From Rhizobium sp. Leaf371 (GTDB lineage: Bacteria > Pseudomonadota > Alphaproteobacteria > Rhizobiales > Rhizobiaceae), in the NCBI RefSeq assembly GCF_001424045.1, contig NZ_LMQB01000003.1, positions 147,871 through 211,870 of the forward strand: a DNA stretch of 64,000 bases. The letters run 5' to 3'. The position numbers and the translations under genes are program-made. Of the stretch, positions 34,589 to 54,385 are shown one piece after another (positions within the stretch are counted from its first letter, which is position 1; every line of letters begins with the position of its first letter). The notes beneath the pieces are model-generated. The model was given only the letters and a program-made list of their open reading frames with translations. It did no database searches and had not been told where the DNA came from.

Positions 34589-35266
34589 ATGACGCTTCAC
34601 TTTGGAATTCTCTGCTTTCCCGCCGTCCAGCAGCTGGACCTGACCGGGCCTTATGAGGTCTTCGCCTCCGCCACGGGCGCGAAGGTCCATCTCGTGTGGA
34701 AGGATCTTGAGCCCGTGCGAGCCTCGACCGGTCTCTGGCTGCAACCCGACATGCGCTTTGTCGACGCGCCGGATTTCGACGTCCTGTGCGTGCCGGGCGG
34801 CGCGGGCGTCAACGCGCTGCTCACCGACGACGAGACGTTAGCCTTCGTGCGGGACAAGGCCGCCAAGGCGCGCTTCGTGACGTCGGTCTGCACCGGTTCG
34901 CTTGTCCTTGGCCGCGCCGGTCTTCTCCGGGGCCGCCGTGCCACCACGCACTGGAACGCCCATGATTTCCTCGCGAGCTTCGGTGCGGTGCCCGTCAGGG
35001 AGCGGGTCGTGCGGGACGGATCGCTCATCACGGCCGGCGGCGTCACCTCCGGCATCGACTTCGGGCTTGCCGTCGTCGCAGAGCTTATCGGGCAAGAGGA
35101 AGCCGAAACGATCCAGCTGTCGCTGGAATACGCGCCCGAGCCTCCCTTCGGCGCAGGCCTCCCCGAAACCGCCTCGCCGGACGTGCTCGCATCCGCCAGG
35201 GCCCGCATGGCGGGATCGCGGCGGGAGCGAGAGGTGCTCCTGTCCGCGATAGGCCCGGAAAGTTGA
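34589..35266 (+). CDS. DJ-1/PfpI-family protein, isonitrile hydratase-like
   Basis: This 225-residue cytosolic protein has a DJ-1/PfpI fold. The nucleophile elbow is TSVCTGSLVLGRAGLL, with C101 and T102, and D17 lies in QQLDLTGPYEVF. These positions agree with the residues described for Pseudomonas InhA, which hydrates isonitriles to N-substituted formamides. The length (InhA about 228) fits as well. AAGGAA precedes the start. The divergent GlxA-type regulator carries a related domain. Other family members are deglycases or of unknown function, so the substrate remains inferred. Confidence 0.85.
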   Translation: MTLHFGILCFPAVQQLDLTGPYEVFASATGAKVHLVWKDLEPVRASTGLWLQPDMRFVDAPDFDVLCVPGGAGVNALLTDDETLAFVRDKAAKARFVTSVCTGSLVLGRAGLLRGRRATTHWNAHDFLASFGAVPVRERVVRDGSLITAGGVTSGIDFGLAVVAELIGQEEAETIQLSLEYAPEPPFGAGLPETASPDVLASARARMAGSRREREVLLSAIGPES

Positions 35267-35536: not shown

Positions 35537-36529
35537 ATGACGCGACAGGCGAATGGGATGATGGATGTGCGTCTGATGCGGACGCTTCTGACCTTGCTGA
35601 CGGAATGCAGCGTTTCGAAGACAGCCGACATTCTGGGGCAAGCGCAGCCGACGGTTAGCCTGACGTTGAAACGGCTGCGGGAAATGCTGGACGATCCGCT
35701 TCTGGTCCGGTCCGGAGGAGCGCTGGTGCCCACGGAGCGCGGTCTCGCTTTGAAGGATACATTGCGCGATATTCTCGGCACGATCGACGCACACCTATCG
35801 CCGCACGCCACCTTCGACCCCGACACTGCGACACGAAACTTTCGCATCGTCGCAGACAACTGCCTCGGAGCCGTGTTTCTGCCCCGGCTGGTCGGAAACA
35901 TTGCACAAAAGGCGCCCAATGTCAGTGTCGATGCGTCGCATATGCCGAGCTATGACGATCTGATCAGCCAGCTCGCGGATGGGTCCATCGATGCGGTCAT
36001 CGGAAACTGGCCGCATCCGCCGGAAAATCTGCGGATGTCGCCCTTGTTGAGCACCGACATCGTCTGCGTCGTTCGCCCGAGCCATCGACTGGCAAGTCTC
36101 CAGGAACCGATGGCGATGGGCGAGTTCCTGAAGGAAAAACATCTCTCTCCGACATCCGACAAGCGCGCCCATCTCAGCCCGATCGACGGACGGCTGATCG
36201 AGCTCGGGCTCAAGCGCAACATCGCCGTCTCCGTACCGGAATATGCGATCACGCCCTACGTGCTGACGCAATCGGACCTCGTCTTCACCACCGGTCGAAT
36301 TTTTGCCGAGCAGATCGCACAATCCTTTCCGCTCGTCGTTCTGGAGGCACCGCGCGAACTCGGTCAGATGCAGTTTTACATGCTCTGGCACGAGTGCAAG
36401 CACCAGTCGCCCGATCACGTCTGGCTGCGACAAACGATCAAGTCGGTTGCGGCCGGCGTTCGCGTCTTCGATCCGACGGGATCGATGCCAATGACCTTCC
36501 TGCGGTCCGAAGCGCCCGTCTTTGTTTAA
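35537..36529 (+). CDS. LysR-family transcriptional regulator
   Basis: This regulator of 330 residues has an N-terminal winged helix (about 10-70: LMRTLLTLLTECSVSKTADI, GQAQPTVSLTLKRLREMLDD) and a LysR substrate-binding domain of NodD/NahR-like type (RNFRIVADNCLGAVFLPRLV). The ATG at 35537 is preceded by AAGGAGAAGG. It is co-directional with, and 138 bases upstream of, a ten-gene transport and degradation operon, and is its probable activator responding to the substrate or an intermediate. Confidence 0.9.
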   Translation: MTRQANGMMDVRLMRTLLTLLTECSVSKTADILGQAQPTVSLTLKRLREMLDDPLLVRSGGALVPTERGLALKDTLRDILGTIDAHLSPHATFDPDTATRNFRIVADNCLGAVFLPRLVGNIAQKAPNVSVDASHMPSYDDLISQLADGSIDAVIGNWPHPPENLRMSPLLSTDIVCVVRPSHRLASLQEPMAMGEFLKEKHLSPTSDKRAHLSPIDGRLIELGLKRNIAVSVPEYAITPYVLTQSDLVFTTGRIFAEQIAQSFPLVVLEAPRELGQMQFYMLWHECKHQSPDHVWLRQTIKSVAAGVRVFDPTGSMPMTFLRSEAPVFV

Positions 36530-36667
36530 CACCAGTGACGCGGGATCGGACGCGAGCGGACCCAGGTTTTGCGCCGTGCAATATAGTCTATTTGGATCGC
36601 GTTATAGGTTTTCCTGTCACGGCGGGCGACATTGGCTGCAGTTCACTCGCAACCATATGAGGGCATC

Positions 36668-37750
36668 ATGGCAGGTTCACAAGTTAGCCGACGTGACGTG
36701 CTTGCAGGGATCGCCGCCGGCGCGGCGGCAGGGATGTTCGGTTCTCTCGGCAGCGCGAGAGCTGCCGTTTCCGAGATGGTCTGGGCGACCTGGGATTCCA
36801 ACGGGCACCCCGAATACGTCGCCGCCTTCGAGGCGCAGACCGGCGTCAAGGTAAAGCTGTCCTTTCTTTCCAGTGAGGATGCGCAGTTTGCGGCCCTGAA
36901 AACCGGCTCGGCCTCCGACTGGGACATGATCAACCCATCGTTGAACGGAAGCTGGCGCTACATCAAGGCTGGATTGCTCGAAGAAATCGACATGGCGAAG
37001 ATCCCCAACGCCGCCAAGATGTACGATGTTTTCAAGACGACGCCAAAGGTTCTCGACGCCTCCGGCAAGCAGTTCGCGGTTCCCTATCTCTGGGGTCTGA
37101 ACCCGATCGTCTACCGCAAGGACAAGTTCGAAAGCGAGCCCGACTACACGACCTTGTTCAACGAGACATACAAGGGCCAGCTTGCCATGCGCGATTATGC
37201 GTTGGAATCCATCGCCATCGCAGGTCTGGTGGCCGGCGTGCCGCGCGACAAGGTCTTTCTCATGGAAACTAGGGAATTGGCGGAGGCCAAGAAGCTGCTG
37301 GTCGCGCAGAAGCCGCTGTTACGCACCTATTGGCAGACGATCGGCGATCTCACCAATCTGTTTGCCACAGGCGAGGTTTCCTGCGCGTTTTCGTGGCGGG
37401 TTCCCTACGATACGCTGAAAGACACATTGCCGATGGGGATGGCCAAGCCGAAGGCCGGCATCATGGGCTGGTGCGACTGCTTTGCCATGCCGGCCACCTT
37501 GTCGGCCGAGAAGAGCGAGATCGGCTACAAGTTCATCGATTATCTGCTCGGGCCGGAATATGCCACGCAGATCGCCAAGATCGGCAATTACGCGACCACG
37601 TCCTCGGTCATCCGCGACGATTTGTCGAAGGAGCAGCAGGAGCCGATCTTCGTCGACGACATGGAGGTGATGAAGTCGTTCATGTGGCCGGTCGCCCCGG
37701 AGAATTATCCCGAGTGGTTGAAGATCTGGAATGAAGTCAAGGCAAGCTGA
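36668..37750 (+). CDS. Spermidine/putrescine-type (PotD/F-like) ABC substrate-binding protein
   Basis: This periplasmic protein of 360 residues has a twin-arginine signal (SRRDVLAGIAAGAAAG) processed near SARA. The mature part (VWATWDSNGHPEYVAAFEAQ, AVPYLWGLNPIVYRKDKF) is of the PotD/extracellular-binding-protein family 1/8 type, used for polyamines, opines and other cationic or N-rich compounds. GAGG 5 bases upstream sets the start. It heads a PotABC-like set, then six catabolic genes, so the ligand is probably the substrate of that pathway. Confidence 0.88.
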   Translation: MAGSQVSRRDVLAGIAAGAAAGMFGSLGSARAAVSEMVWATWDSNGHPEYVAAFEAQTGVKVKLSFLSSEDAQFAALKTGSASDWDMINPSLNGSWRYIKAGLLEEIDMAKIPNAAKMYDVFKTTPKVLDASGKQFAVPYLWGLNPIVYRKDKFESEPDYTTLFNETYKGQLAMRDYALESIAIAGLVAGVPRDKVFLMETRELAEAKKLLVAQKPLLRTYWQTIGDLTNLFATGEVSCAFSWRVPYDTLKDTLPMGMAKPKAGIMGWCDCFAMPATLSAEKSEIGYKFIDYLLGPEYATQIAKIGNYATTSSVIRDDLSKEQQEPIFVDDMEVMKSFMWPVAPENYPEWLKIWNEVKAS

Positions 37751-37752
37751 TC

Positions 37753-38838
37753 ATGGTGACCACGCCTGAAGGGGCGCCAGATTACGCAAGATCGGGATTG
37801 CTGCTGTCCGCCCGCGGCTTAACCAAGACCTATGGTGGGCAATGCGTGGTCGATGGCATCGATCTCGATATTCCGGAAAGGGCGTTCACGACCTTCCTTG
37901 GTCCCTCCGGCTGCGGCAAGACGACCATCTTGCGAATGATTGCCGGTTTCGAAACGCCGGACGCGGGGTCGATCGTGCTCGACGGGCGGGCGCTGTCCGG
38001 GGTTCCGCCGGAGCGCCGGCCGGTCAATACGGTGTTCCAGAGCTATGCCTTGTTTCCACATCTGACGGTGCTCGACAATGTCGCCTTCTCGCTGACCCTG
38101 CGGCGCCAGAGCAATATCGACGTCGCAGCCCGCGTCAAACGCGCGCTGGATGCCGTGCACATGACCGCGTTCGGCGACCGTTATCCCCACCAGCTCTCGG
38201 GTGGCCAGCAGCAGCGGATCGCGGTGGCGCGCGCGATCATCGCCGAACCGCATCTTCTTCTGTTGGACGAACCCCTTTCCGCGTTGGACAAAAAGATGCG
38301 CGGACACCTGCAGATCGAGCTGAAGGATCTGCAGCGGCGTCTCGGTATCGCCTTCGTCTATGTCACCCACGATCAGGAGGAGGCCTTTGCGCTCTCCGAC
38401 ATCGTCGTCGTCATGAACAAGGGGCGCATCGTTCAGAAGGCACCACCGCTGACAATCTACGCCCGCCCTGCCAACGCCTTCGTTGCCGACTTCATCGGAG
38501 CGGCGACCCTCCTTCCGGGCGACATCGTCGCTGGCGAGGAGGCCAACGAATCGGCTGCAATCGACACGGCCATCGGCATCGTCGCGTGCCCGGCGGTGGA
38601 GGGATTGGCGAAAGGAGACAGGGCGGTTCTCGCCATCCGGCCGGAGCACGTCCGCATCGGCACGGACGGCCTGAGCGCGGTGATCCGGCATGTGGTGTTC
38701 AAGGGGGATCGTTACCTTGTCGAGGCCGAGGTCAACGGCTTCATTCTGCAGTTCCTCGCGGATACCCCGCTGACGCCCGGAACGACGGTGGGGCTGATCG
38801 TCGATAAAGACCGCGCCTTCATCACGAGGATCGGCTGA
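37753..38838 (+). CDS. PotA-like ABC transporter ATP-binding protein
   Basis: This ATPase of 361 residues starts 2 bases after the binding protein. Walker A (GPSGCGKTT), the Q-loop (FQSYALFPHLTVLDNV), signature (LSGGQQQRIAVARAI), Walker B (LLLLDEPLSAL) and switch histidine (THDQEEA) are intact. The C-terminal 110 residues are a TOBE domain, as in PotA and other family 3 importers. It energises uptake with the two permeases that follow, and its TGA overlaps the next ATG. Confidence 0.93.
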   Translation: MVTTPEGAPDYARSGLLLSARGLTKTYGGQCVVDGIDLDIPERAFTTFLGPSGCGKTTILRMIAGFETPDAGSIVLDGRALSGVPPERRPVNTVFQSYALFPHLTVLDNVAFSLTLRRQSNIDVAARVKRALDAVHMTAFGDRYPHQLSGGQQQRIAVARAIIAEPHLLLLDEPLSALDKKMRGHLQIELKDLQRRLGIAFVYVTHDQEEAFALSDIVVVMNKGRIVQKAPPLTIYARPANAFVADFIGAATLLPGDIVAGEEANESAAIDTAIGIVACPAVEGLAKGDRAVLAIRPEHVRIGTDGLSAVIRHVVFKGDRYLVEAEVNGFILQFLADTPLTPGTTVGLIVDKDRAFITRIG

Positions 38839-39716
38839 TGGCTCCGGTTTTTCATCGGGCACAGCTTGCCCTCCCCGTGGCCTTGATTCTGATCCCGGGG
38901 TGCGTTCTGCCCCTGGTCGTGCTCCTGGTTTTCAGCGTCTTTGAGGTGGATCTCGATACGTTCACGCTGGTTCCGGCCTTTTCCGGACAGAGCTGGCGCC
39001 AGATTTTCACCAATCCGGTCTTCGCTTTTCTAATCGGCAAGGCGGTCGTCTCCGGCGCGGGCACGGCCGTGCTGGCAGCTTGCGTCGGATACCCGATCGC
39101 CGTTTCGATGACGCGCCTTCCCGTTCTCTGGAAGGGGGTCGGCAGCATCGTCCTTCTGACGCCGCTTTATACGGGCGAGATCGTCAGGATTTATGCCTGG
39201 CGGATCGTCCTTGGCTCCGAGGGGCTCGTCAATGCGGCTCTGGAATGGATCGGCTTGATCGATGAGCCTTTGAAATTTCTGCTTTTCTCGCCGTTCACGA
39301 CCCATCTCGTGCTGCTCTACAACAACCTGCCCTTCATGGTGCTGGCGATCTGGATATCTGCGGAACTGATCGACAAGCGGTTGATCGAGGCCGCACGGGA
39401 TCTTGGCGCCCGCCCGATCGATGCGTTCTTCAAGGTCATTCTGCCACTGACGACGCCGGGACTGGCCGTCGGCATCTTTACGGTCTTCGCGCTGGCCGCT
39501 GGCGATATGATGACGCCGAGCCTTCTCGGCGGAACGTCCGGCGCGACCCCGATGGCGATGATCGACAACCTGTTCGGAACCGCATTCGACTGGCCGCTGG
39601 CCTCCGCTTTGTCGCTCAGCCTTCTCGTTGTCCTGTTCGCCTTTGCCACCGGGTTCGTGACGGTCCTTCTTCGGTTCGAGGGCGCGCGAGCGGTCTTCCA
39701 GAGGGGGACGCGATGA
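38838..39716 (+). CDS. PotB-like ABC permease
   Basis: This inner-membrane protein of 292 residues has six hydrophobic segments and the EAA loop EAARDLGARPIDAFFKVILP, which docks on the ATPase. It resembles PotB-type permeases of polyamine and related importers. It overlaps its neighbours by 1 and 4 bp, so the four transport genes are tightly co-translated. Confidence 0.92.
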   Translation: MAPVFHRAQLALPVALILIPGCVLPLVVLLVFSVFEVDLDTFTLVPAFSGQSWRQIFTNPVFAFLIGKAVVSGAGTAVLAACVGYPIAVSMTRLPVLWKGVGSIVLLTPLYTGEIVRIYAWRIVLGSEGLVNAALEWIGLIDEPLKFLLFSPFTTHLVLLYNNLPFMVLAIWISAELIDKRLIEAARDLGARPIDAFFKVILPLTTPGLAVGIFTVFALAAGDMMTPSLLGGTSGATPMAMIDNLFGTAFDWPLASALSLSLLVVLFAFATGFVTVLLRFEGARAVFQRGTR

Positions 39717-40510
39717 GCCGTCTGGTCGTCTTCACGCTCGGTCTTGCCGTCTGTTTCTTCTATCTGCCCATCGTGGTTCTCGGGATTTTCTCCTTCAACG
39801 CCGCGAGCACGATGGCTTTTCCGCTCACCGGTTTCACCCTCTCCTGGTATGCCGATCTTTTCGGCAACGATGCCTTTCTCGGCGGCTTCATCACCAGCTT
39901 TCTGATCGCGCAGCCCGTGGGGGTGCTGGGCGCACTGATCGGATTGATGGCGGCGTTGGCCGTGACATCGCCGCGCATGCAATTCCGCGCCGCGTTCGCG
40001 ATCCTCGTTCTCGTTCCCTTTCTGGTACCGAAGACGGTCCTGTCCATCGCGCAGGCCATGCTGATCAGCTGGGTGGGACTGGGACGCGGGGCGACCGCGC
40101 TCATTCTGGCGCAGACGCTGGTCGTCATCCCCTTCACCACGACCATCCTTGCCGCCGTGATGATCCGGCTCGACCCGCGGCTTGAGGAAGCGGCGCGGGA
40201 TCTCGGCGCCACCCCGTGGCAGAGTTTCCGGCGTGTCCTGCTGCCCCAGCTGAGCGTCGCCTTGAGTGCCGCCTATTCCATCGGGGTCATCCTGTCGCTG
40301 GCCGATCTCACGATCTCGATGTTCCTGGCCGGCCGCACGCAGCCCCTGTCGCTGATCGTCGCATCGGAATTCCGGCGCGAACTGAAGCCCGACCTCAATG
40401 CCATGCAGGTTTCCGTCCTCGTATTGACGGCCCTGATCGTGGCGCTGACCGAAATCAATCGCCGACGCCGTCTGCGAGGACGTCTGGCGCATGGACGAGA
40501 TGACCGATGA
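39713..40510 (+). CDS. PotC-like ABC permease
   Basis: This second membrane subunit of 265 residues has six hydrophobic segments and the coupling loop EEAARDLGATPWQSFRRVLL. The opening FFYLPIVVLGIFSFNAASTM is typical of PotC-type partners. It overlaps the PotB-like gene by ATGA upstream and the flavin monooxygenase gene by ATGA downstream, tying the importer to the enzymes. Confidence 0.92.
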   Translation: MSRLVVFTLGLAVCFFYLPIVVLGIFSFNAASTMAFPLTGFTLSWYADLFGNDAFLGGFITSFLIAQPVGVLGALIGLMAALAVTSPRMQFRAAFAILVLVPFLVPKTVLSIAQAMLISWVGLGRGATALILAQTLVVIPFTTTILAAVMIRLDPRLEEAARDLGATPWQSFRRVLLPQLSVALSAAYSIGVILSLADLTISMFLAGRTQPLSLIVASEFRRELKPDLNAMQVSVLVLTALIVALTEINRRRRLRGRLAHGRDDR

Positions 40511-42021
40511 TGATTGCCCCGATCGACACATCCCGCATGACACTCGACGAGCTGAAGCAGGCGGCGCTCGCCGATCTCACATTGCTCGGCTATCCCAGCG
40601 CCCCGTGGCTCGGCGATCATCCCCGACCCGACGCGGCCGGGATCGCCGATGCCATCATCGTCGGCGGCGGCCAGTCCGGCGTCACGATCGCTGCCGCCCT
40701 GAAGTGGGACGGACTGCGCCGTGTCCGTGTTCTCGACAGCGGCGCGCCGGGGGCCGAGGGGCCATGGCTGACATTCGCGCGCATGGAAGAATTGCGGACG
40801 CCAAAAACCCAGGTCGGCAATGAATTCAACGTCGTCAACCTGTCTGTCCGCCGCTGGTTCGAGACACGTTACGGGCAGCAGGCCTGGGCCGATCTGTCCC
40901 GTATTCCACGAACGGACTGGAAGGCCTATCTCGACTGGTATGCCGACGTCTTCGAGATCGCCATCGCCAATCATTGCGAGGTCCTGAATGTCGCCCCGGA
41001 TGGCGATTTGATCGCCGTTACCACGCGGATCGACGGGACAATCGAAACATCGCTGGCGCGCACCGTGGTGCTGGCCACCGGATACGACGGCGCAGGGGCG
41101 TGGCGTGTTCCAGCGTTCGTCTCGGACACGCTCGGGCCGGAGAAATTCGATCATACCAACGGCCCGGTCGATTTCGACGCGTTGAAGGGATTGCGCGTCG
41201 GCGTGCTTGGCCATGGTGCATCGGCATTCGACAATGCGATCAAGGCGCTGGAAGCCGGTGCCGCCGCCGTGGATCTGTGCTTCCGGCGCGCGCGTCTGCC
41301 ACGCACCAATCCCCATCGTGCGGTCGAGACGCCCGGCATGATGACGCAGTATCCGGACCTCTCCGAGACCACCCGCTGGGACATCGCCCGGTTCTTCCGC
41401 AGCGCAGATCAGCCGCCGCCGGTTCGCAGTTTCGAAACGGCGACACGCTTTGAAAACTTCACGCTTCGTCCGGCAACCCCTTGGCTGGAGGTTTCTCAAC
41501 AGCCCGATGCGATCCGTGTCACCACCCCCGACGGCGATCTGGAGTTCGATCACCTCCTTCTTGCCACAGGCATGGATGTCGATCTGGCCGTCAGACCCGA
41601 ACTCCGGACCCTCCACGACAAGGTGGCGCTCTGGGGTGACCGGTACATGCCACAGGAAGGCAGCGCGGATGCCCGGCTTGCGAGGTTTCCCTACCTCGAC
41701 GGCTTCTATGGGTTTATCCCGAACAATCCGCACGAAACATGGGTCGGCCGGGTCTTTGCCTTCAACAGCAGCAGTTTCGTCAGTCACGGCCCACACTCCA
41801 CCTCGATCAGCGGACACAAGCATGCCGTGCCGCGGCTTGTCCGCGGTGTCCTGCGTCGACTGCTGCTCGATCGGGAAGCGGTCATCCTGCCGGAACTCAA
41901 AGCCTATACCGCACCGGACCTGCCGATCCCGGACGATTTCGAGAACCGGCTGATCGCGGCCAACCGGCAAGCGGCAAGCTCACCCAAGATTGGGAACCAA
42001 GCCAAAAGGGGTGGCGCATGA
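40507..42021 (+). CDS. FAD/NAD(P)-dependent flavoprotein monooxygenase
   Basis: This cytosolic enzyme of 504 residues has an FAD-binding Rossmann motif (AIIVGGGQSGVTIAAALKW, about 57-75) and a second nucleotide site (GVLGHGASAFDNAIKALEAG, about 235-254), the pattern of class B flavin monooxygenases and related oxidoreductases. RTDWKAYLDWY is also typical of these uncharacterised FAD-NAD(P)-binding proteins. The likely reaction is hydroxylation or N-/Baeyer-Villiger-type oxygenation of the imported compound. It follows the importer by ATGA and is itself followed by the creatininase gene by ATGA. Confidence 0.86.
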   Translation: MMIAPIDTSRMTLDELKQAALADLTLLGYPSAPWLGDHPRPDAAGIADAIIVGGGQSGVTIAAALKWDGLRRVRVLDSGAPGAEGPWLTFARMEELRTPKTQVGNEFNVVNLSVRRWFETRYGQQAWADLSRIPRTDWKAYLDWYADVFEIAIANHCEVLNVAPDGDLIAVTTRIDGTIETSLARTVVLATGYDGAGAWRVPAFVSDTLGPEKFDHTNGPVDFDALKGLRVGVLGHGASAFDNAIKALEAGAAAVDLCFRRARLPRTNPHRAVETPGMMTQYPDLSETTRWDIARFFRSADQPPPVRSFETATRFENFTLRPATPWLEVSQQPDAIRVTTPDGDLEFDHLLLATGMDVDLAVRPELRTLHDKVALWGDRYMPQEGSADARLARFPYLDGFYGFIPNNPHETWVGRVFAFNSSSFVSHGPHSTSISGHKHAVPRLVRGVLRRLLLDREAVILPELKAYTAPDLPIPDDFENRLIAANRQAASSPKIGNQAKRGGA

Positions 42022-42836
42022 CGCAATCCTTCTTCTGGGCAGATCATTCCACCGCCGATTTCGCGTCCCGAAATCTCAGCGAGACCGTGGTCATCCTGCC
42101 AATCTCGGCAATCGAGCAGCACGGGCCTCATCTTCCGGTGCAGGTCGATGCAGCGATCAATGCGGCGATCCTCGATCGGATGGTGCGCCTGCTTGATCCA
42201 ACCGCGGATGTCCTCATCCTGCCGGCGTTCAGCGTCGGCAAGTCGGATGAGCATCTGGCCTATCCGGGAACGCTGACCCTATCGGCGCAAACCCTGCGGC
42301 TCGTCTGGCTCGATATCGCCAGAAGCGCGAAGCGGGCCGGTGTCCGCAAGATCGTCCTGTTCAATTCGCATGGCGGGCAGATCTCGCTGATGGAGATGAC
42401 CTGCCGCGATATCCGTGTCGAACTCGATATGCTCGCGGTCGCCTGTTCCTGGTTTCGGATTGCACCGGTCGATGATCTGTTCTCCCAAACGGAGATCGTG
42501 CACGGCATTCACGGCGGCGATATCGAGACCAGTATGATGCTGGCCATCGCCCCGCATTTGGTCGTCATGGACAAGGCGGAGGATTTCGTGCCGCTGACCC
42601 TTGAGATCGAGCAGTCCGGCAGCCCCTTGACGGCGGAAGGCGCGGTCGGTTTCGGCTGGCAGGCGCAGGACCTTCATCCCGCAGGCGTCTGCGGAAATGC
42701 CGCCAATGCCGACGCCGTCAAAGGCGCGCTGGTGCTGGACCGGGCGGCCACGGGGTTGACGCGCCTGATCGCGGCGACGAGGGATTTCGACATGAGCAGG
42801 CTCACCTCCGAAACCCGCTTCTCGGACGGTCGCTAG
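42018..42836 (+). CDS. Creatininase-family amidohydrolase
   Basis: This metal-dependent cyclic-amidase-type enzyme has 272 residues. The metal ligands occur in AIEQHGPHLPVQVDA (E, H and D), FNSHGGQ and GGDIETSMML, matching the creatininase fold. Relatives include creatininase, the formamidopyrimidine deformylase ArfB and the mycofactocin protease MftE, so the family cleaves cyclic or formyl amides, or peptides. The start overlaps the flavoprotein TGA. In context it probably opens a lactam-like ring or removes a formyl group. Confidence 0.88.
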   Translation: MTQSFFWADHSTADFASRNLSETVVILPISAIEQHGPHLPVQVDAAINAAILDRMVRLLDPTADVLILPAFSVGKSDEHLAYPGTLTLSAQTLRLVWLDIARSAKRAGVRKIVLFNSHGGQISLMEMTCRDIRVELDMLAVACSWFRIAPVDDLFSQTEIVHGIHGGDIETSMMLAIAPHLVVMDKAEDFVPLTLEIEQSGSPLTAEGAVGFGWQAQDLHPAGVCGNAANADAVKGALVLDRAATGLTRLIAATRDFDMSRLTSETRFSDGR

Positions 42837-42838
42837 CC

Positions 42839-44503
42839 ATGCTCGAACTCCGCGACGTCGATACGCTTCGGATGCCCATGACGGACGGTGTCCATCTGGT
42901 CGCCGACGTCTATCGGCCTGTCGGCCCGGAGCGCTATCCCGTTCTGGTGATGCGCCTGCCCTATGGGCGAAAGGTCGCCTCGACGGTCGTTCTCGCCCAT
43001 CCCGCCTGGTATGCGGCGCACGGCTATGTCGTTCTGGTGCAGGATGTTCGCGGTCGCGGAGACTCCGAAGGGGTTTTCAGGATTCTCGAAGACGATGTCG
43101 CGGATGGTGCGCGGACGCTGTCGCTCGCGGCGGATCTTGCCGGCGGCAATGGCATGGTGGCAAGCTATGGTTTCAGCTACCACGGAATGAACCAGTATCT
43201 GGCCCTTGCCGGCGCTCGAAAATCCGGCGGCAAGGCCCCCGACGCGATGGCGATCGCCATGGCAGCCTTCGATGTGCGCAATCACTGGGCCTTCGAGGGC
43301 GATGGGTTCCGGATGCAGTCCAATCAGATGTGGGCCTGCCAGATGGCCATCGAAAATGCCCGGCTGGCCGACGACCTCGACGCCGCCCATCTGTTGCAGG
43401 CCGCTTTGCCATCCCTGCATTCCGGCGCAATCTCGGCACGGCCGGATGCTCTGGCGACGACATCGCAACACACACATTACCAGGACTGGCTGGCCGACGA
43501 TCCCACCTATTGGCAGGCACGATCGCCACATGCGCTGTTGGAGGGTGTGACGCTCGACGTTCCCATTCTGCATGTCGGCGGATGGAACGACATCATGCTC
43601 GAGGGCACCTTGGCCGCCTTCCACGCCTTTTCTTCGAGCCGCAGTCTTCAGCGGCTCTCCATCGGTCCCTGGTCGCACATTCCCTGGGGCCGACGGGTCG
43701 GGGCGCTGGATGCGGGACCCGGCGCGGCAGACGGTATCGACCGTGAGATCGTCGCATTTTTCGACGAGGCCCTGAAAGGTCGCGAAAATCCGTCCCCGAA
43801 GATCCGGCTCTTCGATGTGGTGAAACAGACTTGGGCCGGCTTCGAAAGCCTGCCGCGATCGGAAATGCGGGTGCTTCATCTCGCGTCCGGCGGCCGTGCG
43901 GCCACGACGAGTATCGATGGAACGCTTGCGGAGACACCAGGGGTCACGCGTGCCGATCGTCTCGTCCACGATCCATGGCGACCGGCCCCGAGCGTGGGCT
44001 TGCATCTCGGCACCCCTCCGGATTTCACCGACCGGGCGGCGATCGACGACAGGGCCGATGTGCTTGTCTACACCTCCGGTCCGCTCGACCTGCCGCTCGT
44101 TTTGTTCGGCGCCGCGAACGTCGATCTCTTCGTGACCGCGGACAGACCGAGTTTCGACCTGGATTGTACCTTGAGCATGCTCACCCCCGACGGGGCGGCC
44201 ATCAGCATGACGTCGGGACATAAAACCGTAAAGCCGAACACGGCAGCATCGCCGATGTCCGTCACGCTGCGACCGATGCAGATGACGGTGCCGGCGGGGC
44301 ATTGCCTGCGTCTGTCGATACAGGCAGCGTCGTTTCCCGCCTTTCCCGTCAATCCGGGCACCGGCGCGCGGCCCCAGGACGCGACCGTCACCGACCGGCT
44401 GGTCACGACCCTCCTGGTCCGGTCAGGCGATGGCTACCCCTCCGCCCTGCGACTGCCCGTGATGCCGCCACCTGACCGTGAGGAGAATGAATGTGAGCCT
44501 TGA
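42839..44503 (+). CDS. CocE/NonD-family serine hydrolase
   Basis: This cytosolic alpha/beta hydrolase of the cocaine esterase/X-Pro dipeptidyl-peptidase family has 554 residues. The nucleophile elbow is SYGFSYHGMNQYLAL, the acid lies in HVGGWNDIMLEGT and the histidine in IGPWSHIPWG. A C-terminal jelly-roll domain (about 330-550) ends near GDGYPSALRLPV. Family members hydrolyse bulky esters, acyl conjugates or amides. It lies 2 bases after the creatininase-family gene. The N-terminus has no signal peptide, so it acts after import. Confidence 0.9.
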   Translation: MLELRDVDTLRMPMTDGVHLVADVYRPVGPERYPVLVMRLPYGRKVASTVVLAHPAWYAAHGYVVLVQDVRGRGDSEGVFRILEDDVADGARTLSLAADLAGGNGMVASYGFSYHGMNQYLALAGARKSGGKAPDAMAIAMAAFDVRNHWAFEGDGFRMQSNQMWACQMAIENARLADDLDAAHLLQAALPSLHSGAISARPDALATTSQHTHYQDWLADDPTYWQARSPHALLEGVTLDVPILHVGGWNDIMLEGTLAAFHAFSSSRSLQRLSIGPWSHIPWGRRVGALDAGPGAADGIDREIVAFFDEALKGRENPSPKIRLFDVVKQTWAGFESLPRSEMRVLHLASGGRAATTSIDGTLAETPGVTRADRLVHDPWRPAPSVGLHLGTPPDFTDRAAIDDRADVLVYTSGPLDLPLVLFGAANVDLFVTADRPSFDLDCTLSMLTPDGAAISMTSGHKTVKPNTAASPMSVTLRPMQMTVPAGHCLRLSIQAASFPAFPVNPGTGARPQDATVTDRLVTTLLVRSGDGYPSALRLPVMPPPDREENECEP

Positions 44504-44975
44504 TCACCAAAGTCTTCTTCGACTGACCTTTGACATTGCACGGCGGTCGAAAGCGCATGGCAACATGCCCTTCGGCGCGCTGCTGGCCGGTCCCGGCGGC
44601 GATATTCTCCTGGAGCAGGAAAACGAATACTTTCCCGACCATGATGCGACAGGCCATGCCGAGCGCCTGCTGGCAACGCAGGCTTCGAAGCTTTATCGCG
44701 CCCCCTTTCTGGCGGAGTGTACGCTTTACAGCTCGGCGGAACCCTGCGCCATGTGCGCCGGCGCCATTTACTGGGTGGGCATCGGCAGGGTCGTCTATGG
44801 CCTTTCCGAACACCGCCTGAAGGCCATGACTGGCGATCACCCCGACAATCCGACGATGGCCCTGCCGTGCCGCGCGGTGTTTTCGGCAGGCCAGAAAAGC
44901 ATCGAGGTCATCGGCCCCCTGATCGAGACGGAGGCCGAGGCCGTTCACCGGGATGCCTGGCAACCGACCGTTTGA
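44493..44975 (+). CDS. Zinc-dependent nucleobase/nucleoside deaminase
   Basis: This protein of about 160 residues belongs to the cytidine deaminase-like fold. The zinc ligands are in GHAERLLATQ (H, with proton-shuttle E) and AEPCAMCAGAIYW (two cysteines), as in guanine deaminase GuaD and tRNA adenosine deaminase TadA. The GTG at 44493 is favoured because AGGAG ends 7 bases before it; an in-frame ATG at 44487 would sit almost on that site. It overlaps the CocE-type gene by 11 bases. In a catabolic operon, a free-base or heterocycle deaminase is more likely than tRNA editing. Confidence 0.87.
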   Translation: MSLDHQSLLRLTFDIARRSKAHGNMPFGALLAGPGGDILLEQENEYFPDHDATGHAERLLATQASKLYRAPFLAECTLYSSAEPCAMCAGAIYWVGIGRVVYGLSEHRLKAMTGDHPDNPTMALPCRAVFSAGQKSIEVIGPLIETEAEAVHRDAWQPTV

Positions 44976-45047
44976 CAGCACGTGGCCACGCCTTCTTCGA
45001 CAGAGGGTGAAACATGCGCCGCCGGTTTCAGGGAGAAAGGGAGAGTC

Positions 45048-46097
45048 ATGGTTCCAATGCAACGCACATCGCAAGAGCTGGAAACGCTGCTGGCAGGCAT
45101 GCCGAAATGGGGCTCCGAATTTTCGCACACATTCGCCAATCATGCGCCCATGGTCCTTGTCGCGTTGGACCGGATCGGCGGTAAGCCGGATCAGCTCCGC
45201 CGATTCTTCCGTCACTACAGAGACGCCAAACATCTTCTGCCCTTTGCCCAGCCGGTGAACCGCCTGGATGGCGAAAGCTGGAAAACCGCCATCGGATTGC
45301 GCGAGCGCGAACCCGATCTGCGCGTTTTTTTTGCCGGTGAGGTGGCGAGGCTCGGGATACACGAGGCTTTGAAACTTTATCTTCCCGATCTTGCGGACGG
45401 CATTGCCGCCAGTGCCTTTCACGCTCTCATGAGAACCGCTTACGCGGTGCTCCGCGCCGACGAGACCGATGTCACCATTGCCCTCGCCTATTGGGCCGCC
45501 ACCTATCTTCCCCTTCCGGCGTCGCGGAGCGCCCCACCCATCACGCGCGACCCGGCCGAAATCCTGGCCATGACCGCTGCGATCGAACCCTTGCATGGCC
45601 TGAAACTCCACGACCTTCTCTGGCAGAACATGCGCGACGCCGGCAACGTGCCGGAATTTGCGCCCGTCGTCGATTGGCTCGACATCGGGCCGGAGACACT
45701 GGAGAGAATGGCGGCGACGGCGCTCGCCTTGTTCGCGGCAACCCAGCATTTCGCCGCCTTGCACATCATTACCGGGCTGCACTGGATCCGCCTCCTGAAG
45801 CCGCATTGCCATGATGCGACGCTCCATCGGATGTTGCGGGTGTTCTGGCAGGGGATCGCCGCGCTGATGGGCGAGCTCGGCTTTCCCGAAATGCCGGACG
45901 CAGCCGCGGTCGATCGCTGGCGTCAGATCCAAGGGCCGGATTGGCCGGAGATGCATGCGATCGCGGCGCAAAGCTACGACGAGCACGATATCAGCCTTGC
46001 CTTCTCCGCCAGCGAGGAGATGAAAATCTACGGCGATCCCCTGTATCGCGTCGTGGTCGCGCGCCGCCTCGGACTGATCGGAGACTATACGAGATGA
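45048..46097 (+). CDS. Questin-oxidase-like family protein
   Basis: This 349-residue protein opens FSHTFANHAPMVLVALDRIG, a hallmark of the questin oxidase-like family. It includes a histidine-rich helical core (AATQHFAALHIITGLHWIRL). The named fungal enzyme performs a Baeyer-Villiger-like ring opening of an anthraquinone; bacterial members have no established role. The start has AAGGGAG upstream. It overlaps the amidohydrolase gene by ATGA. In this operon it may cleave a ring of the substrate after the flavoprotein step. Confidence 0.75.
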   Translation: MVPMQRTSQELETLLAGMPKWGSEFSHTFANHAPMVLVALDRIGGKPDQLRRFFRHYRDAKHLLPFAQPVNRLDGESWKTAIGLREREPDLRVFFAGEVARLGIHEALKLYLPDLADGIAASAFHALMRTAYAVLRADETDVTIALAYWAATYLPLPASRSAPPITRDPAEILAMTAAIEPLHGLKLHDLLWQNMRDAGNVPEFAPVVDWLDIGPETLERMAATALALFAATQHFAALHIITGLHWIRLLKPHCHDATLHRMLRVFWQGIAALMGELGFPEMPDAAAVDRWRQIQGPDWPEMHAIAAQSYDEHDISLAFSASEEMKIYGDPLYRVVVARRLGLIGDYTR

Positions 46098-47665
46098 GCG
46101 CGGACGCACCGATCACAGGGGACGGCATCATTGAGGCGGGGACCGTGCTGTGCGGACTTTCGGCGGATGGCACCATGTCCATGCGCCACGATGTCGGCAT
46201 CCGCGTCGCTGGTGGCATGATCGCACAGATCGGGCCGCTCGCCGCCGTCGGCTATGGCAATGACCATCTCGCCCGCTTCGGGTCTCCCGACATGATCGCC
46301 ATGCCGGGGCTGGTCAACAGCCATCATCATTTCGGGGTCACGCCCCTGATGCAGGGCGTGCCCTTCGCGCCTCTGGAATTATGGCTGCCGCAATTCCGGG
46401 CAATGCGGCAGATCGATGTCCGGCTGGACACGCTCTATTCCGCGATCGAAATGCTGGAAAGCGGAACCACCATGGTACAGCATCTCAACAGCGGACTTTC
46501 CGGCGCACCGGAGACCTGGATGGCGACGGCAGACGCCACGCTGGAGGCCTACAGCGAGATCGGCATGCGGGCCGGCTTTTCCTTCATGATTCGCGACCGC
46601 AATATTTTGACCTATGAGGCGGATGCCAAGGTTCTGGCCGCTCTTCCGGACACTCTGCGCAATTGGATCTCGCCGAGGCTCGACGCATCGAACATCCCTG
46701 TTGCGGACCTGATGACGTTTTACCGCGCGCTCAGGAGAAAATGGATCGAGGTGCGGCCGGATCACGTGCGCGTCAATCTCGCCCCCGCCAATCTGCACTG
46801 GTGCACGGACGACTGCCTTCAGGCGATTTTCGAGACAGCGCGGGAGACCGACGCGCAGGTCCATATGCATCTTCTGGAGACCGAGCGGCAATCGCATTTC
46901 GCCTGGAACGAATATGGCCATACCGCTGTCCAACATTTGAAGGCGCTCGAATGCCTTGGTCCGAACGTCACGCTCGGGCACGGGAACTGGATGAGCCGCG
47001 CGGATCTCGACATCCTCGCCGATTGCGGCTGTACCCTGTGCCACAATGCCTCGTCCGGCCTGCGTCTCGGCAGCGGCATCGCCCCCGTCAACGAGATGCG
47101 CCGTCGCGGCATTCCGGTGGCCCTCGGCATCGACCAGTCGAACATCGCAGACGATCGCGACATGACGCTCGAAATGAAGCTGGTGTGGGCACTCCACCGT
47201 GAAACGGGTCTGTGGAACGACCGCCCCGACGCCGGTGCCGTCCTGCAGATGGCGACGGAACATGGTGCGAGATCGATCGGCTTCGGCGGCTTTACGGGTC
47301 GGCTGGAACCCGGTCACCAAGCGGATATCGTGCTGATGGACCGCCGCAGGATCGGGCGACCGCATGTCAACCGCCGGACACCGGTGGCCGAGAGCGTTCT
47401 GCACCGCGGCGGACGCCATGCCATCACGCAGGTGTTTGTCGGCGGCCGCCTCGTCGTAGATGACGGAAAAGTGGTCACGATCGACAGAGAAGCGGTTCTC
47501 GCGGACATCGGTGAGCGACTTGAACGGCCGGAAACGCAGGGTGAAAAAGATGCCTGGGACGCGATCAATGCACTCCTGCCCCACCTCGCACGCCATCACC
47601 GAGATGTCACGCAAGCATGCGGATATCGCGCTTACCGTTACAATGCGATGGCAGACAGGGAATAG
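46094..47665 (+). CDS. Amidohydrolase (TrzN/AtzA/SsnA-type deaminase or chlorohydrolase)
   Basis: This metal-dependent TIM-barrel amidohydrolase of 523 residues has VNSHHHFGVTPL with the first metal ligands and HMHLLETERQ. It also shows GHGNWMSRADLDIL, NASSGLRLGSGIAPV and LGIDQSNIADDRDM, which match the subtype III group of TrzA/TrzN, AtzA-C and 8-oxoguanine deaminase. These enzymes remove amino or halide groups from nitrogen heterocycles. It is the last gene of the operon, so the pathway contains two different deaminase-type activities plus a creatininase-type amidase. Confidence 0.87.
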   Translation: MSADAPITGDGIIEAGTVLCGLSADGTMSMRHDVGIRVAGGMIAQIGPLAAVGYGNDHLARFGSPDMIAMPGLVNSHHHFGVTPLMQGVPFAPLELWLPQFRAMRQIDVRLDTLYSAIEMLESGTTMVQHLNSGLSGAPETWMATADATLEAYSEIGMRAGFSFMIRDRNILTYEADAKVLAALPDTLRNWISPRLDASNIPVADLMTFYRALRRKWIEVRPDHVRVNLAPANLHWCTDDCLQAIFETARETDAQVHMHLLETERQSHFAWNEYGHTAVQHLKALECLGPNVTLGHGNWMSRADLDILADCGCTLCHNASSGLRLGSGIAPVNEMRRRGIPVALGIDQSNIADDRDMTLEMKLVWALHRETGLWNDRPDAGAVLQMATEHGARSIGFGGFTGRLEPGHQADIVLMDRRRIGRPHVNRRTPVAESVLHRGGRHAITQVFVGGRLVVDDGKVVTIDREAVLADIGERLERPETQGEKDAWDAINALLPHLARHHRDVTQACGYRAYRYNAMADRE

Positions 47666-49302: not shown

Positions 49303-50700
49303 TCAGCCCCTCGCCACCCGCGCCTCTCTCTCCGCCGCCAACACACGATACGCCGCGCCGGGGTGCGGGGCGGCGAGCCTTGGGCCGGCGTCGAAGAGTT
49401 TCTCGCGCAGGGTGCCCGGTCGATACGCCGTCTTGTAGACGCCGCGTTTCTGCAGCTCGGGCACGAGAAGATCGACCGCGTCCTCGAAGGTTTCCGGGGT
49501 CACGGCGTAAGCGAGGTTGAAGCCGTCGACGTCGGTGTCTTCGACCCATTCCTGCAGGAGATCGGCCACCGTCTGGGGAGATCCGACGAAGACCGGTCCG
49601 AAGCCACCGATGCCCACCCAGTCGGCCATTTCGCGGACGGTCCAGACCTTGTCCGGGTCGATGGTCGTAAAGGTTTCCACGGCCGATTGGACGGCATTGG
49701 TATAGCGATGGCGCAGGGGTTCGTCGGGCGCGAACTGTCCGAAATCGATCCCGGTCCAGCCGGAGATGAGCGTCAACGCCCCCTCGTAGGACACGTGCTT
49801 CCTATACTCGTCGAACTTCCGCTTGGCCTCGGCATCGGTTTCCCCGAGGATCACCGTCTGCAGGTTAAAGGCGAGAATATCGCGCGGGTTGCGCCCTGCC
49901 CGTTCGGCCGCCTCGCGCACATTGGCGACATAGCGTTTCAGCACGGGCTTCGAGGGCGCGGCGACGAAGATGCACTCGGCATGCGCGCCGGCGAAATCCT
50001 TGCCGCGGCTGGAGGCGCCCGCTTGGTAGAGAACCGGCGTGCGCTGCGGCGACGGCTCGCTGAGGTGGATGCCGGGCACGGTGAAATGCTTGCCCCGATG
50101 GTGGATCGGATGAACCTTTTCGGGATGGGTGAAAATGCCGGACTGACTGTCGCGCACCACCGCATCCTCCTCCCAGCTCCCCTCCCAGAGCTTGTAGCAG
50201 ACCTCCAGATACTCCTCGGCAAGGTCGTAGCGATCGTCGTGGTTCGACTGCTGCGCCTGACCGACGTTCAACGCGCCGCTGTTGAGATAGGAGGTGACGA
50301 TGTTCCAGCCGACGCGGCCCTTGGTCAGGTGGTCGAGCGTCGAGATGCGCCGCGCGAACGTGTAGGGATGCTCGAAGGAGAGCGAGGCCGTCAGCCCGAA
50401 GCCGAGATGCTCCGTCACATAGGCCATGGTCGGGATCAGCTGCAGCGGATCGTTGACCGGCACCTGCGCCGAATGGCGCAGCGCCGCGTCCGTATTGCCG
50501 TTGAGAACGTCGTAGACGCCGAGCACGTCGGCGATGAACAGGCCATCGAATTTGCCGCGCTCGAGCGTCTTTGCAAGCTGCACCCAGTAGTCGAGATCCT
50601 TGTAGCGGGAGGATTGGTCGCGCGGATGCGTCCAGAGCCCGGGCGATTGATGGCCGACGCAGTTCATGTCGAAAGCGTTCAGTCGGATTTCACGGGTCAT
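49303..50700 (-). CDS. NtaA/SnaA/DszA-family FMNH2-dependent monooxygenase
   Basis: This enzyme of 465 residues belongs to the bacterial luciferase-like class C flavin monooxygenases. REIRLNAFDMNCVGHQSPGL at the start, the GRVGWNIVTSYLNSGALNVG segment, and QAGASSRGKDFAGAHAECIF are diagnostic of the DszA/NtaA subgroup. These two-component enzymes use FMNH2 from a partner reductase to cleave C-S or C-N bonds in sulfones, nitrilotriacetate and similar compounds. No reductase is seen nearby. The ATG at 50700 has AAAGGA 7 bases upstream. It follows a CUT2 importer in the same direction, 16 bases after the permease stop, so it is the probable consumer of the imported compound. Confidence 0.9.
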   Translation of the reverse strand: MTREIRLNAFDMNCVGHQSPGLWTHPRDQSSRYKDLDYWVQLAKTLERGKFDGLFIADVLGVYDVLNGNTDAALRHSAQVPVNDPLQLIPTMAYVTEHLGFGLTASLSFEHPYTFARRISTLDHLTKGRVGWNIVTSYLNSGALNVGQAQQSNHDDRYDLAEEYLEVCYKLWEGSWEEDAVVRDSQSGIFTHPEKVHPIHHRGKHFTVPGIHLSEPSPQRTPVLYQAGASSRGKDFAGAHAECIFVAAPSKPVLKRYVANVREAAERAGRNPRDILAFNLQTVILGETDAEAKRKFDEYRKHVSYEGALTLISGWTGIDFGQFAPDEPLRHRYTNAVQSAVETFTTIDPDKVWTVREMADWVGIGGFGPVFVGSPQTVADLLQEWVEDTDVDGFNLAYAVTPETFEDAVDLLVPELQKRGVYKTAYRPGTLREKLFDAGPRLAAPHPGAAYRVLAAEREARVARG

Positions 50701-50716
50701 CGACGGTTCCTTTGTG

Positions 50717-51721: not shown

Positions 51722-51722
51722 G

Positions 51723-54276: not shown

Positions 54277-54346
54277 GTCTGAGAGGTCATGTCTGGGCTC
54301 CTGCGGACGGCGCGGACGGAGAGCGGAAAATGTCGGGAGACGGTGT

Positions 54347-54377
54347 GGGCCGGACGTTGGGAGGCGCCGTCCGGCCC
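54347..54377 (-). terminator. Strong stem-loop between binding-protein and ATPase genes
   Basis: GGGCCGGACG pairs perfectly with CGTCCGGCCC (10 bp, 11-base loop), 9 bases beyond the binding-protein stop. There is no T run. It is best read as a stabilising or attenuating structure that raises binding-protein levels relative to the membrane parts. Confidence 0.6.
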
Positions 54378-54385
54378 GATCGGGA

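What the first reader, a model, noticed from the sequence alone, without database searches (positions are those of the whole stretch)
35537..47665. Eleven-gene import-and-degrade cluster with an unusual enzyme set
A LysR gene is followed by ten co-directional genes that mostly overlap by ATGA or lie within a few bases: PotFABC-type importer, class B-like flavoprotein, creatininase-family amidohydrolase, CocE-type hydrolase, CDA-fold deaminase, questin-oxidase-like protein and TrzN/AtzA-type amidohydrolase. I know of no described pathway with this combination. Each family is established; that they act on one imported compound is inferred from coupling. Two deaminase-type enzymes, an amidase, an esterase and two oxygenase-like proteins together suggest an N-heterocycle carrying ester or amide side groups (an alkaloid, purine/pterin/flavin-like, or a triazine-like xenobiotic).
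Basis: partly seen in the sequence, partly recalled or inferred. Interest (0 to 1): 0.78.

Follow-up and report, generated by a model that had tools for sequence, protein, structure and literature searches.

The report
Likely ring-opening nutrient operon in rhizobia
A bacterium of the Rhizobium family carries an eleven-gene unit, whose core is kept together in related bacteria, that probably imports a nitrogen-rich ring compound and breaks it open with oxygen, using an enzyme kind better known from fungal pigment and aflatoxin pathways; which compound it uses is unknown.

Summary
Eleven + strand genes fill 35537-47665, with four ATGA overlaps; only two gaps exceed 2 nt. Nine genes (LysR, four-gene ABC importer, flavoprotein, creatininase-family, questin-oxidase-like QOX, TrzN-type amidohydrolase AHY) keep this order in 22 of 80 QOX loci fetched. 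CocE (13/22) and CDA deaminase (12/22) are optional inserts at one spot. A conserved LysR-type palindrome precedes the importer; it is the only exact match in the genome.

The QOX model significantly matches only the dioxygenases PaD, BTG13 and AflY. The flavoprotein model best matches N-hydroxylases. QOX with this flavoprotein recurs in other clusters; those scanned carry 8-oxoguanine deaminase, allophanate hydrolase or BiuH-like genes. The importer's five nearest relatives found sit in hydantoinase clusters. Cyanuric-acid/biuret/allophanate genes lie about 70 kb away on the same contig.

Best reading: a horizontally acquired, LysR-controlled operon that imports a cyclic-ureide-type N-heterocycle (purine-, hydantoin- or pyrimidine-like), deaminates it, cleaves the ring oxidatively and hydrolyses the product. 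Gene order and co-conservation are shown; ring type and chemistry are inferred; the substrate is unknown.

The parts
35537..36529 (+). LysR-type regulator
   Evidence: Pfam HTH_1 + LysR_substrate; present in 22 of 22 core loci
36578..36593 (+). Predicted LysR box GCAATATAGTCTATTT; GTTATAGG element just downstream
   Evidence: Full box, with variants, in 22 of 25 aligned LysR-SBP spacers; in L054, L059 and L061 only its right half lies in the extracted spacer. Only match with up to 3 mismatches in the window, 0 expected; only exact genome match to the core CAATANANTCTATT
36668..37750 (+). ABC importer solute-binding protein, PotD/PotF-like
   Evidence: SBP_bac_8; PotD equivalog not met, 84.7 vs 582 bits; five nearest non-type-A relatives found lie in hydantoinase clusters
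37753..38838 (+). ABC importer ATPase
   Evidence: ABC_tran + TOBE_2; PotA-like 369.9 bits, cut-off 482
38838..39716 (+). ABC importer permease 1
   Evidence: BPD_transp_1, 24.7 bits, below cut-off 26.4; position and co-conservation
39713..40510 (+). ABC importer permease 2
   Evidence: BPD_transp_1, 40.9 bits
40507..42021 (+). FAD/NAD(P)-binding flavoprotein with N-hydroxylase-like fold ('FMO')
   Evidence: Pyr_redox_3; AlphaFold2 pLDDT 88.4; top PDB folds KtzI, SidA, PvdA, E 6e-21 to 3e-20
42018..42836 (+). Creatininase-family metal amidohydrolase
   Evidence: PF02633, 226.9 bits; presumed metal-ligand motifs conserved in 25 aligned sequences (ligand roles recalled)
42839..44503 (+). CocE/NonD-family serine hydrolase (optional)
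   Evidence: TIGR00976, 327.7 bits, cut-off 66.3 met; in 13 of 22 core loci
44487..44975 (+). CDA-fold (TadA/guanine-deaminase-like) zinc deaminase (optional)
   Evidence: PF00383, 69.7 bits; in 12 of 22 core loci, one of them (L049) apparently split between two frames
45048..46097 (+). Questin-oxidase-like (DUF4243) predicted metal-dependent ring-cleaving dioxygenase (QOX)
   Evidence: PF14027; AlphaFold2 pLDDT 94.4; only PDB folds at E <= 0.001 are PaD, BTG13, AflY
46094..47665 (+). TrzN/AtzA/8-oxoguanine-deaminase-type amidohydrolase (AHY)
   Evidence: PF01979, 136.5 bits; directly downstream of QOX in 33 of 36 rows on one side of the QOX tree and in 0 of 45 loci on the other

Best explanation
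This is one LysR-controlled catabolic operon. A four-gene ABC importer brings in a small, amino-substituted N-heterocycle containing a cyclic ureide (N-CO-N) unit, of the purine, hydantoin or pyrimidine kind. AHY, helped in some strains by the CDA deaminase, removes ring amino groups. The flavoprotein (hydroxylase-type fold, presumably NAD(P)H/O2) converts the ring into an electron-rich hydroquinone-like or N-hydroxylated form. QOX, a predicted non-heme-metal dioxygenase, then cleaves a ring C-C bond with O2. The creatininase-family enzyme hydrolyses the resulting lactam or imide. CocE, when present, strips an ester or amide substituent and so widens the substrate range. Ureido fragments can drain into the genome's biuret/allophanate route. 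Shown: genes, junctions, co-conservation, conserved operator-like site, kept active-site motifs, predicted folds. Inferred: single transcript, ring type, order of steps, oxygen chemistry. Unknown: the substrate.
For: Nine-gene core in one order in 22 of 80 loci with a conserved LysR-type palindrome. Presumed active-site residues kept in the 13-25 aligned type A sequences of each enzyme. QOX significantly matches only PaD 'Hydroquinone Dioxygenase', BTG13 and AflY by profile and fold, with five His invariant wherever the column is filled (99 rows, 11 of them repeats of one locus). MinC, with a DUF4243 domain, takes part in an 'oxidative deamination-recombination' of an N-heterocyclic C-nucleoside in minimycin biosynthesis (PMC8724604, section 6 read). 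A flavoprotein relative lies within 6 kb of QOX in 15 of 17 QOX-bearing genomes of 297 searched. Scanned sister QOX clusters hold 8-oxoguanine deaminase (L038, 614 bits, cut-off 532 met), allophanate hydrolase (L039, 667, cut-off 511 met), a BiuH-like hydrolase (L039, 276, cut-off 370 not met) and an AtzH-like protein (L027). The 5 nearest non-type-A binding proteins found (49-51% identical) sit with hydantoinase and carbamoylase genes; cut-offs were checked, and met, in L122 only. AHY relatives in L124-L126 sit near PuuE-allantoinase-like genes, in L125 also a hydantoin-racemase-family gene. AtzD, BiuH, AtzF and a TrtA-like gene lie on the same contig.
Against: No enzyme except CocE/NonD (a broad subfamily) reaches an NCBIfam cut-off. 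The flavoprotein family is not QOX-specific: 56 of 280 genomes without QOX have it. The genome has a canonical PuuE allantoinase (526 bits, cut-off 424.6), so plain allantoin use would be redundant. The Lys after the last His motif in PaD and AflY is Ser in 99 of 99 QOX rows, so the metal site may differ and dioxygenase activity is not assured. The biuret link is co-occurrence only and partly follows phylogeny: G169, same genus, has AtzD but no QOX or type A binding protein; 9 of 17 AtzD genomes and 51 of 63 BiuH genomes have no QOX. PuuE-like neighbours of AHY kin are all below the PuuE cut-off.
Confidence: 0.5

Rival explanations
1. The ring is a larger fused N-heterocycle (pterin, lumichrome/flavin-like) or a plant alkaloid; flavoprotein and QOX open the benzenoid or pyrazine ring and the hydrolases trim the pyrimidine part.
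For: QOX relatives named for hydroquinone or anthraquinone cleavage suit fused aromatic rings; AHY belongs to a superfamily that includes pterin deaminases (recalled). Sugar-type sister clusters with an FGGY kinase and SDR would suit a ribityl or glycosyl form.
Against: No flavin- or pterin-named family among the genes scanned; several of these are of ureide type.
Confidence: 0.2
2. It degrades an aromatic quinone/hydroquinone (plant or fungal polyketide-like) carrying amide or ester groups; N-heterocycle context is incidental.
For: The QOX relatives of solved structure are named for, or (recalled) act in, hydroquinone/anthraquinone chemistry.
Against: The importer's nearest relatives, AHY kin and scanned sister-cluster genes are of ureide/deaminase type.
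Confidence: 0.12
3. It degrades a triazine-like xenobiotic recruited recently.
For: AHY falls in the TrzN/AtzA-type subfamily, and AtzD/BiuH/AtzF occur on the same contig.
Against: Within the 22 loci core proteins diverge to about 60-77% identity while keeping gene order, so the unit is not recent; triazine cut-offs are not met.
Confidence: 0.08
4. Two unrelated pathways under one regulator.
For: CocE and CDA come and go.
Against: The nine core genes stay together in the 22 loci; flavoprotein and QOX recur together with other transporters.
Confidence: 0.07

Closest known systems
Questin-oxidase/DUF4243 dioxygenases of solved structure (BTG13, AflY, PaD)
   Same: QOX predicted fold (TMq 0.70-0.74) and aligned His motifs
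   Different: 15-16% identity; the Lys after the last His motif is Ser; catabolic operon with importer; flavoprotein neighbour instead of the reductase partner recalled for the fungal pathways
MinC (DUF4243 domain) of minimycin biosynthesis
   Same: Bacterial enzyme with a DUF4243 domain acting oxidatively on an N-heterocycle (PMC8724604, section 6)
   Different: Biosynthetic, fused to a phosphatase; MinC itself was not compared in sequence here
Hydantoin/dihydropyrimidine clusters with a Pot-type importer (L122, L123, L128-L130)
   Same: Closest non-type-A importer relatives found, about 50% identity
   Different: No flavoprotein or QOX seen in the fetched stretches; MurR/RpiR-like regulator instead of LysR in those read
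Cyanuric acid / triuret / biuret pathway (AtzD, TrtA, BiuH, AtzF)
   Same: Present in the same genome; BiuH-like and AtzF genes occur inside sister QOX clusters
   Different: Hydrolytic only; none of these genes is in this operon
N-hydroxylating flavin monooxygenases (SidA, PvdA, KtzI)
   Same: Predicted flavoprotein fold
   Different: 14-17% identity; catabolic setting; substrate unknown

Membership tests
PF14027 Questin_oxidase (DUF4243) | Pfam gathering score | tested here: met
   71.6 bits, cut-off 27
PF14027 Questin_oxidase (DUF4243) | Fold of the solved members | tested here: met
   Predicted model; the six PDB matches at E <= 0.001 are all PaD, BTG13 or AflY
BTG13-type iron site (four His plus carboxylated Lys; definition recalled, from no call) | His in the four motifs | tested here: met
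   H32 in 96 of 99 rows (3 gaps), H125, H239, H313 in 99 of 99; motif alignment to PaD
BTG13-type iron site (four His plus carboxylated Lys; definition recalled, from no call) | Lys after the last His motif | tested here: not met
   PaD DGHMCKL and AflY DGHVAKM versus DEHDxS in 99 of 99 rows; so not filed under this site type
s-Triazine hydrolase / 8-oxoguanine deaminase (AHY) | NCBIfam equivalog cut-off | tested here: not met
   174 bits vs 609; 172 vs 532
Creatininase / MftE | NCBIfam equivalog cut-off | tested here: not met
   90.8 vs 235; 112.9 vs 172; Pfam family PF02633 is met
TadA | NCBIfam equivalog cut-off | tested here: not met
   60.8 vs 150
CocE/NonD hydrolases | NCBIfam subfamily cut-off | tested here: met
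   327.7 vs 66.3
Polyamine importer PotFGHI/PotABCD | Equivalog/subfamily cut-off | tested here: not met
   SBP 84.7 vs 582; ATPase 369.9 vs 482 and 337.8 vs 355.6
N-hydroxylating monooxygenases | Fold | tested here: inconclusive
   E 6e-21 at best, TMt 0.69-0.78 in the 50 listed, but 14-17% identity
N-hydroxylating monooxygenases | N-hydroxylation activity | not testable with these tools
   needs assay
Cyanuric acid/biuret pathway | AtzD, BiuH or AtzF in the operon | tested here: not met
   no such match among the operon proteins; genes lie elsewhere on the contig

The most novel reading that the evidence does not exclude
Flavoprotein plus QOX form a bacterial catabolic pair that splits a C=C bond of a cyclic-ureide N-heterocycle with O2, for example the C4=C5 bond of an (8-oxo)purine or urate-type ring, giving an oxalyl-ureide that hydrolyses to biuret/triuret-like products. 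This would be an enzymatic oxygenative exit from purine-like rings separate from the uricase-allantoin route, and an enzymatic source of triuret, whose natural source the TrtA paper calls unknown. Type B clusters would be the nucleoside/glycoside version.
Probability: 0.12. Interest if true: 0.87.

Novelty: new variant of a known kind. Interest (0 to 1): 0.62.

Why it matters
It would place a dioxygenase family known to me mainly from fungal polyketide and aflatoxin biosynthesis into bacterial nitrogen scavenging, and define a modular flavoprotein+QOX core that alpha-proteobacteria combine with at least three importer types (Pot-type, sugar-type, NMT1-type). [quoted passage not shown] these clusters give concrete genes to test an enzymatic origin. 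They also point to an unidentified nitrogen compound for which rhizobia keep a nine- to eleven-gene unit.

Tried and rejected
Polyamine uptake: PotD/PotF/PotA cut-offs not met. Riboflavin/lumichrome and vicine-type substrates were considered from recall only and not tested. TrtA identity of the two isochorismatase-like hydrolases in sister type B clusters: rejected for the first, which has the D-x-C form given for BiuH rather than TrtA's E-x-C, and for the second where the motif could be read, which lacks the Cys (12 of 20 second members; motif not read by my pattern in the other 8; some loci are the same genome fetched twice). The window's BtpA operon (19.3-27.1 kb) as part of the system: rejected, other gene set. 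Baeyer-Villiger assignment of the flavoprotein: one weak sequence hit (6jdk, 8e-7), outweighed by fold. Plain urate/allantoin use: weakened by the PuuE gene. PDB 8wlw/5xkq, the top CDA-fold hits, looked like a mutagen/triazine deaminase from recall; a paper search found nothing, so no claim is made.

Not done: polyamine-site residues of the binding protein; full operon check in the 33 plasmid records with a 90-95% binding protein (regions read: L022, L037, L040); the 66 further QOX relatives that the scan did not return (146 found, 80 kept); a uricase search in the genome.
Full report
OBSERVATION. Pfam and NCBIfam confirm the families; apart from the broad CocE/NonD subfamily no enzyme passes an NCBIfam cut-off. 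The gene before LysR is a DJ-1/PfpI-like gene at 34589-35266 on the same strand; the gene after the unit is on the opposite strand, so the unit ends at 47665.

CO-CONSERVATION. A genome-contig scan (one genome for each of 84,980 species) with a QOX alignment found 146 relatives and kept the best 80 loci. tblastn of the eleven proteins shows the nine-gene core in the same order in 22 of 80, all labelled as Rhizobiaceae genera, Rhizobiaceae or Rhizobiales. CocE and CDA sit only between the creatininase-family and QOX genes: both in 9, CocE only in 4, CDA only in 3, neither in 6. Two further loci are partial or mixed: L057 lacks most of the importer and the creatininase-family gene; L095 has the importer, flavoprotein and creatininase-family genes with a QOX of the other clade and no LysR or AHY match in the fetched stretch. 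In 297 genomes of the family QOX rings in 17 (one, G197, at only E 6.5e-4), and the matches of 64% identity or more for QOX, flavoprotein, binding protein and AHY are the same five genomes. In plasmid records, 33 of 35 binding-protein matches (E <= 1e-90) are 90-95% identical and all 35 are in Rhizobium; three such regions were read. Over the 23-24 loci compared, permease 2 (median 84%) and the binding protein (83%) are the best conserved, QOX (70%) and the flavoprotein (71%) the least.

HORIZONTAL TRANSFER. G283, G229 and G289 match named contigs in length (Ferranicluibacter rubi, Rhizobium sp. PP-CC-3A-592, Allorhizobium taibaishanense; my inference). Three of the four other same-genus genomes sampled have the nine-gene form at 68-71% QOX identity, the fourth (G169) has no QOX, while the window copy is 84-86% identical to R. 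leguminosarum, R. lusitanum and others. The QOX tree puts it in a 12-row group with those (support 100/99), apart from its genus. So the window copy was probably acquired from that lineage. R. leguminosarum-group copies were found on large plasmids, in a collection that holds only plasmids.

REGULATION. The LysR-SBP spacer holds a palindrome (GCAATATAGTCTATTT at 36578-36593; GGCAATAGACTCTATTGCC in L056) in 22 of 25 aligned spacers; in the other 3 only the right half falls in the spacer. It is the only hit in the window with 3 mismatches allowed and the only exact one in the genome. With one mismatch allowed there are 3 genome hits against 4 for the reversed control pattern, so the other two are at chance level. 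This fits a dedicated LysR site; no transcript data were available.

QOX. A profile of 12 QOX sequences hits, in the PDB, PaD 'Hydroquinone Dioxygenase' (3e-10), AflY (0.0016) and BTG13 (0.002-0.006). The single-sequence search had found none of them at E <= 1. The AlphaFold2 model (pLDDT 94.4) has these as its only Foldseek matches at E <= 0.001 (6 entries). His32, His125, His239, His245 and His313 are invariant where present in 99 rows (11 are repeats of one locus), and position 316 is Ser in all 99, against Lys in PaD and AflY. That this Lys is a carboxylated metal ligand in BTG13 is recalled; [quoted passage not shown] In minimycin biosynthesis MinC, with a DUF4243 domain, takes part in an oxidative deamination-recombination of an N-heterocyclic C-nucleoside (PMC8724604, section 6). 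So a metal-dependent O2 reaction on an electron-rich ring is the best guess, with an altered metal site.

FLAVOPROTEIN. Its model (pLDDT 88.4) is closest to N-hydroxylases of the ornithine/putrescine type (the 50 listed of 840 significant matches). A related gene (E <= 1e-30) lies within 6 kb of QOX in 15 of 17 QOX genomes; in G252 it is on another contig of a fragmented assembly, and in G197 none was found. In all 72 of 297 genomes have it, 56 of them without QOX (Fisher test on genomes 5e-10, phylogeny not controlled). Of the 80 loci, 65 carry it in the fetched stretch and 36 have it directly beside QOX.

SISTER CLUSTERS. My grouping of the 80 loci: type A 21 by the gene caller plus L054, which tblastn shows complete, making 22; 40 with a sugar-type importer (type B); 10 with a LysR22 or NMT1-type set (C/D); 7 other; 1 mixed (L095). 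A branch with support 100/99 splits the QOX tree. AHY is directly downstream of QOX in 33 of the 36 rows on one side (types A, C, D; not in L064, L066, L068). On the other side (45 loci, L119 without a called QOX) another amidohydrolase group (AMH4) takes that place in 34 and AHY occurs in none. Type B genes include allophanate hydrolase (L039, 667 vs 511 bits), 8-oxoguanine deaminase (L038, 614 vs 532), a BiuH-like hydrolase (L039, 276 vs 370, not met), an FGGY kinase and BtpA. A type C locus, L027, carries an AtzH-like protein and an NMT1-type binding protein. These were scanned in one representative each; other loci were assigned by sequence clustering.

IMPORTER AND AHY KIN. The five nearest non-type-A binding proteins in the two searches (G097, G171, G161, R. 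daejeonense, Rhizobium sp. ACO-34A; 49-51%) stand beside dihydropyrimidinase/hydantoinase, Zn carbamoylase, N-carbamoyl hydrolase and diaminopropionate ammonia-lyase genes. In L122 the hydantoinase (529 vs 393) and carbamoylase (385 vs 204) cut-offs are met. AHY relatives in L124-L126 (44-68% to the nearest AHY of my set) sit near PuuE-like genes (137-308 bits, cut-off 424.6 not met) and, in L125, an Asp/Glu/hydantoin-racemase-family gene.

SAME GENOME. On the same contig, C3:105.9-120.8 kb, about 63-78 kb before the operon, lie BiuH (423 vs 370), AtzD (527 vs 360), a hydrolase nearer to TrtA than to BiuH (281 vs 213 bits against PDB chains), AtzF (822 vs 511), a creatininase-family paralogue (45%), an NMT1-type importer, a cytosine deaminase (553 vs 403) and a LysR (47% to a type A LysR). 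AtzD occurs in 17 of 297 genomes, 8 of them among the 17 with QOX; by genus 4 of 9 QOX genera vs 4 of 100 (p 0.0014; 0.0008 without G197). BiuH above cut-off occurs in 63 of 297 genomes; by genus 7 of 8 QOX genera vs 29 of 101 (p 0.0017), or 7 of 9 vs 29 of 100 with G197 (p 0.006). Against: 9 AtzD genomes and 51 BiuH genomes have no QOX, G169 of the same genus has AtzD without this operon, and genera are not independent. The genome also has a canonical PuuE.

MECHANISM. Import; deamination by AHY (and CDA); oxygenation by the flavoprotein; ring C-C cleavage by QOX; hydrolysis by the creatininase-family enzyme; optional ester/amide removal by CocE. The order is inferred. For a urate-type ring, C4=C5 cleavage would on paper give a cyclic oxalyl-triuret; this is my chemical inference. 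The TrtA paper says triuret biosynthesis remains to be elucidated and its natural sources are unknown, and suggests formation in plants that is most likely nonenzymatic (PMC7948467, passages). A 2025 study noted, in one archaeal MAG, a biuH near a creatininase-like gene (PMC12625717, passages).

LITERATURE. Searches for questin oxidase/DUF4243/PF14027 (13 papers, 12 listed), creatininase+amidohydrolase+ABC transporter+LysR+Rhizobium+uric acid (1 paper with at least 5 of 6 terms) and triuret/uric acid/dioxygenase/enzymatic (588 papers with at least 3 of 4 terms, 12 listed) gave no listed title or abstract-start that describes this operon or an enzyme that makes triuret. The library holds open-licence papers only.

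VERDICT. A real, diverged, probably transferred operon of a known general kind (import and catabolism of an N-heterocycle) with an enzyme combination I found described nowhere in those searches. My odds: operon about 0.95; N-heterocycle about 0.75; cyclic-ureide type with oxygenative opening about 0.5.

Noticed in passing
window 19286-27130: Separate + strand operon: sugar-type ABC importer, phosphotriesterase-family, GATase1-like PF07090, PfkB kinase, BtpA/SgcQ-family and M20 peptidase genes; unknown pathway.
   Followed up: partly
window 49303-55393: Luciferase-like monooxygenase beside sugar-type ABC permease and binding-protein genes on the - strand.
   Followed up: no
G000:C3:105948-120756 (L143), outside the window: Island with biuret hydrolase, cyanuric acid hydrolase, TrtA-like, allophanate hydrolase, creatininase paralogue, NMT1 importer and a LysR.
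   Followed up: partly
type B loci, e.g. L028:1898-3179, L039:19969-21316: Pairs of adjacent isochorismatase-like hydrolases; in 12 of 20 pairs the second lacks the nucleophile Cys, 8 unresolved by my pattern.
   Followed up: partly
L095: Lichenibacterium locus joins the type A importer, flavoprotein and creatininase gene to a type B-clade QOX and AMH4, with an amidase apparently split in two ORFs.
   Followed up: partly
L057: Contig labelled Methylorubrum zatmanii carries a shortened Rhizobiaceae-like copy (LysR, permease piece, flavoprotein, QOX, AHY); transfer or contamination.
   Followed up: no
L049 about 9500-9900; L040:4763-5799: Possible decay: CDA gene apparently split between two frames in L049; ABC ATPase annotated as two CDS in R. 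beringeri.
   Followed up: no
L131: A cluster of G161 pairs a 43% flavoprotein relative with an 8-oxoguanine-deaminase homologue, PuuE-like gene, HpaB and flavin reductase; no QOX seen in the stretch.
   Followed up: partly
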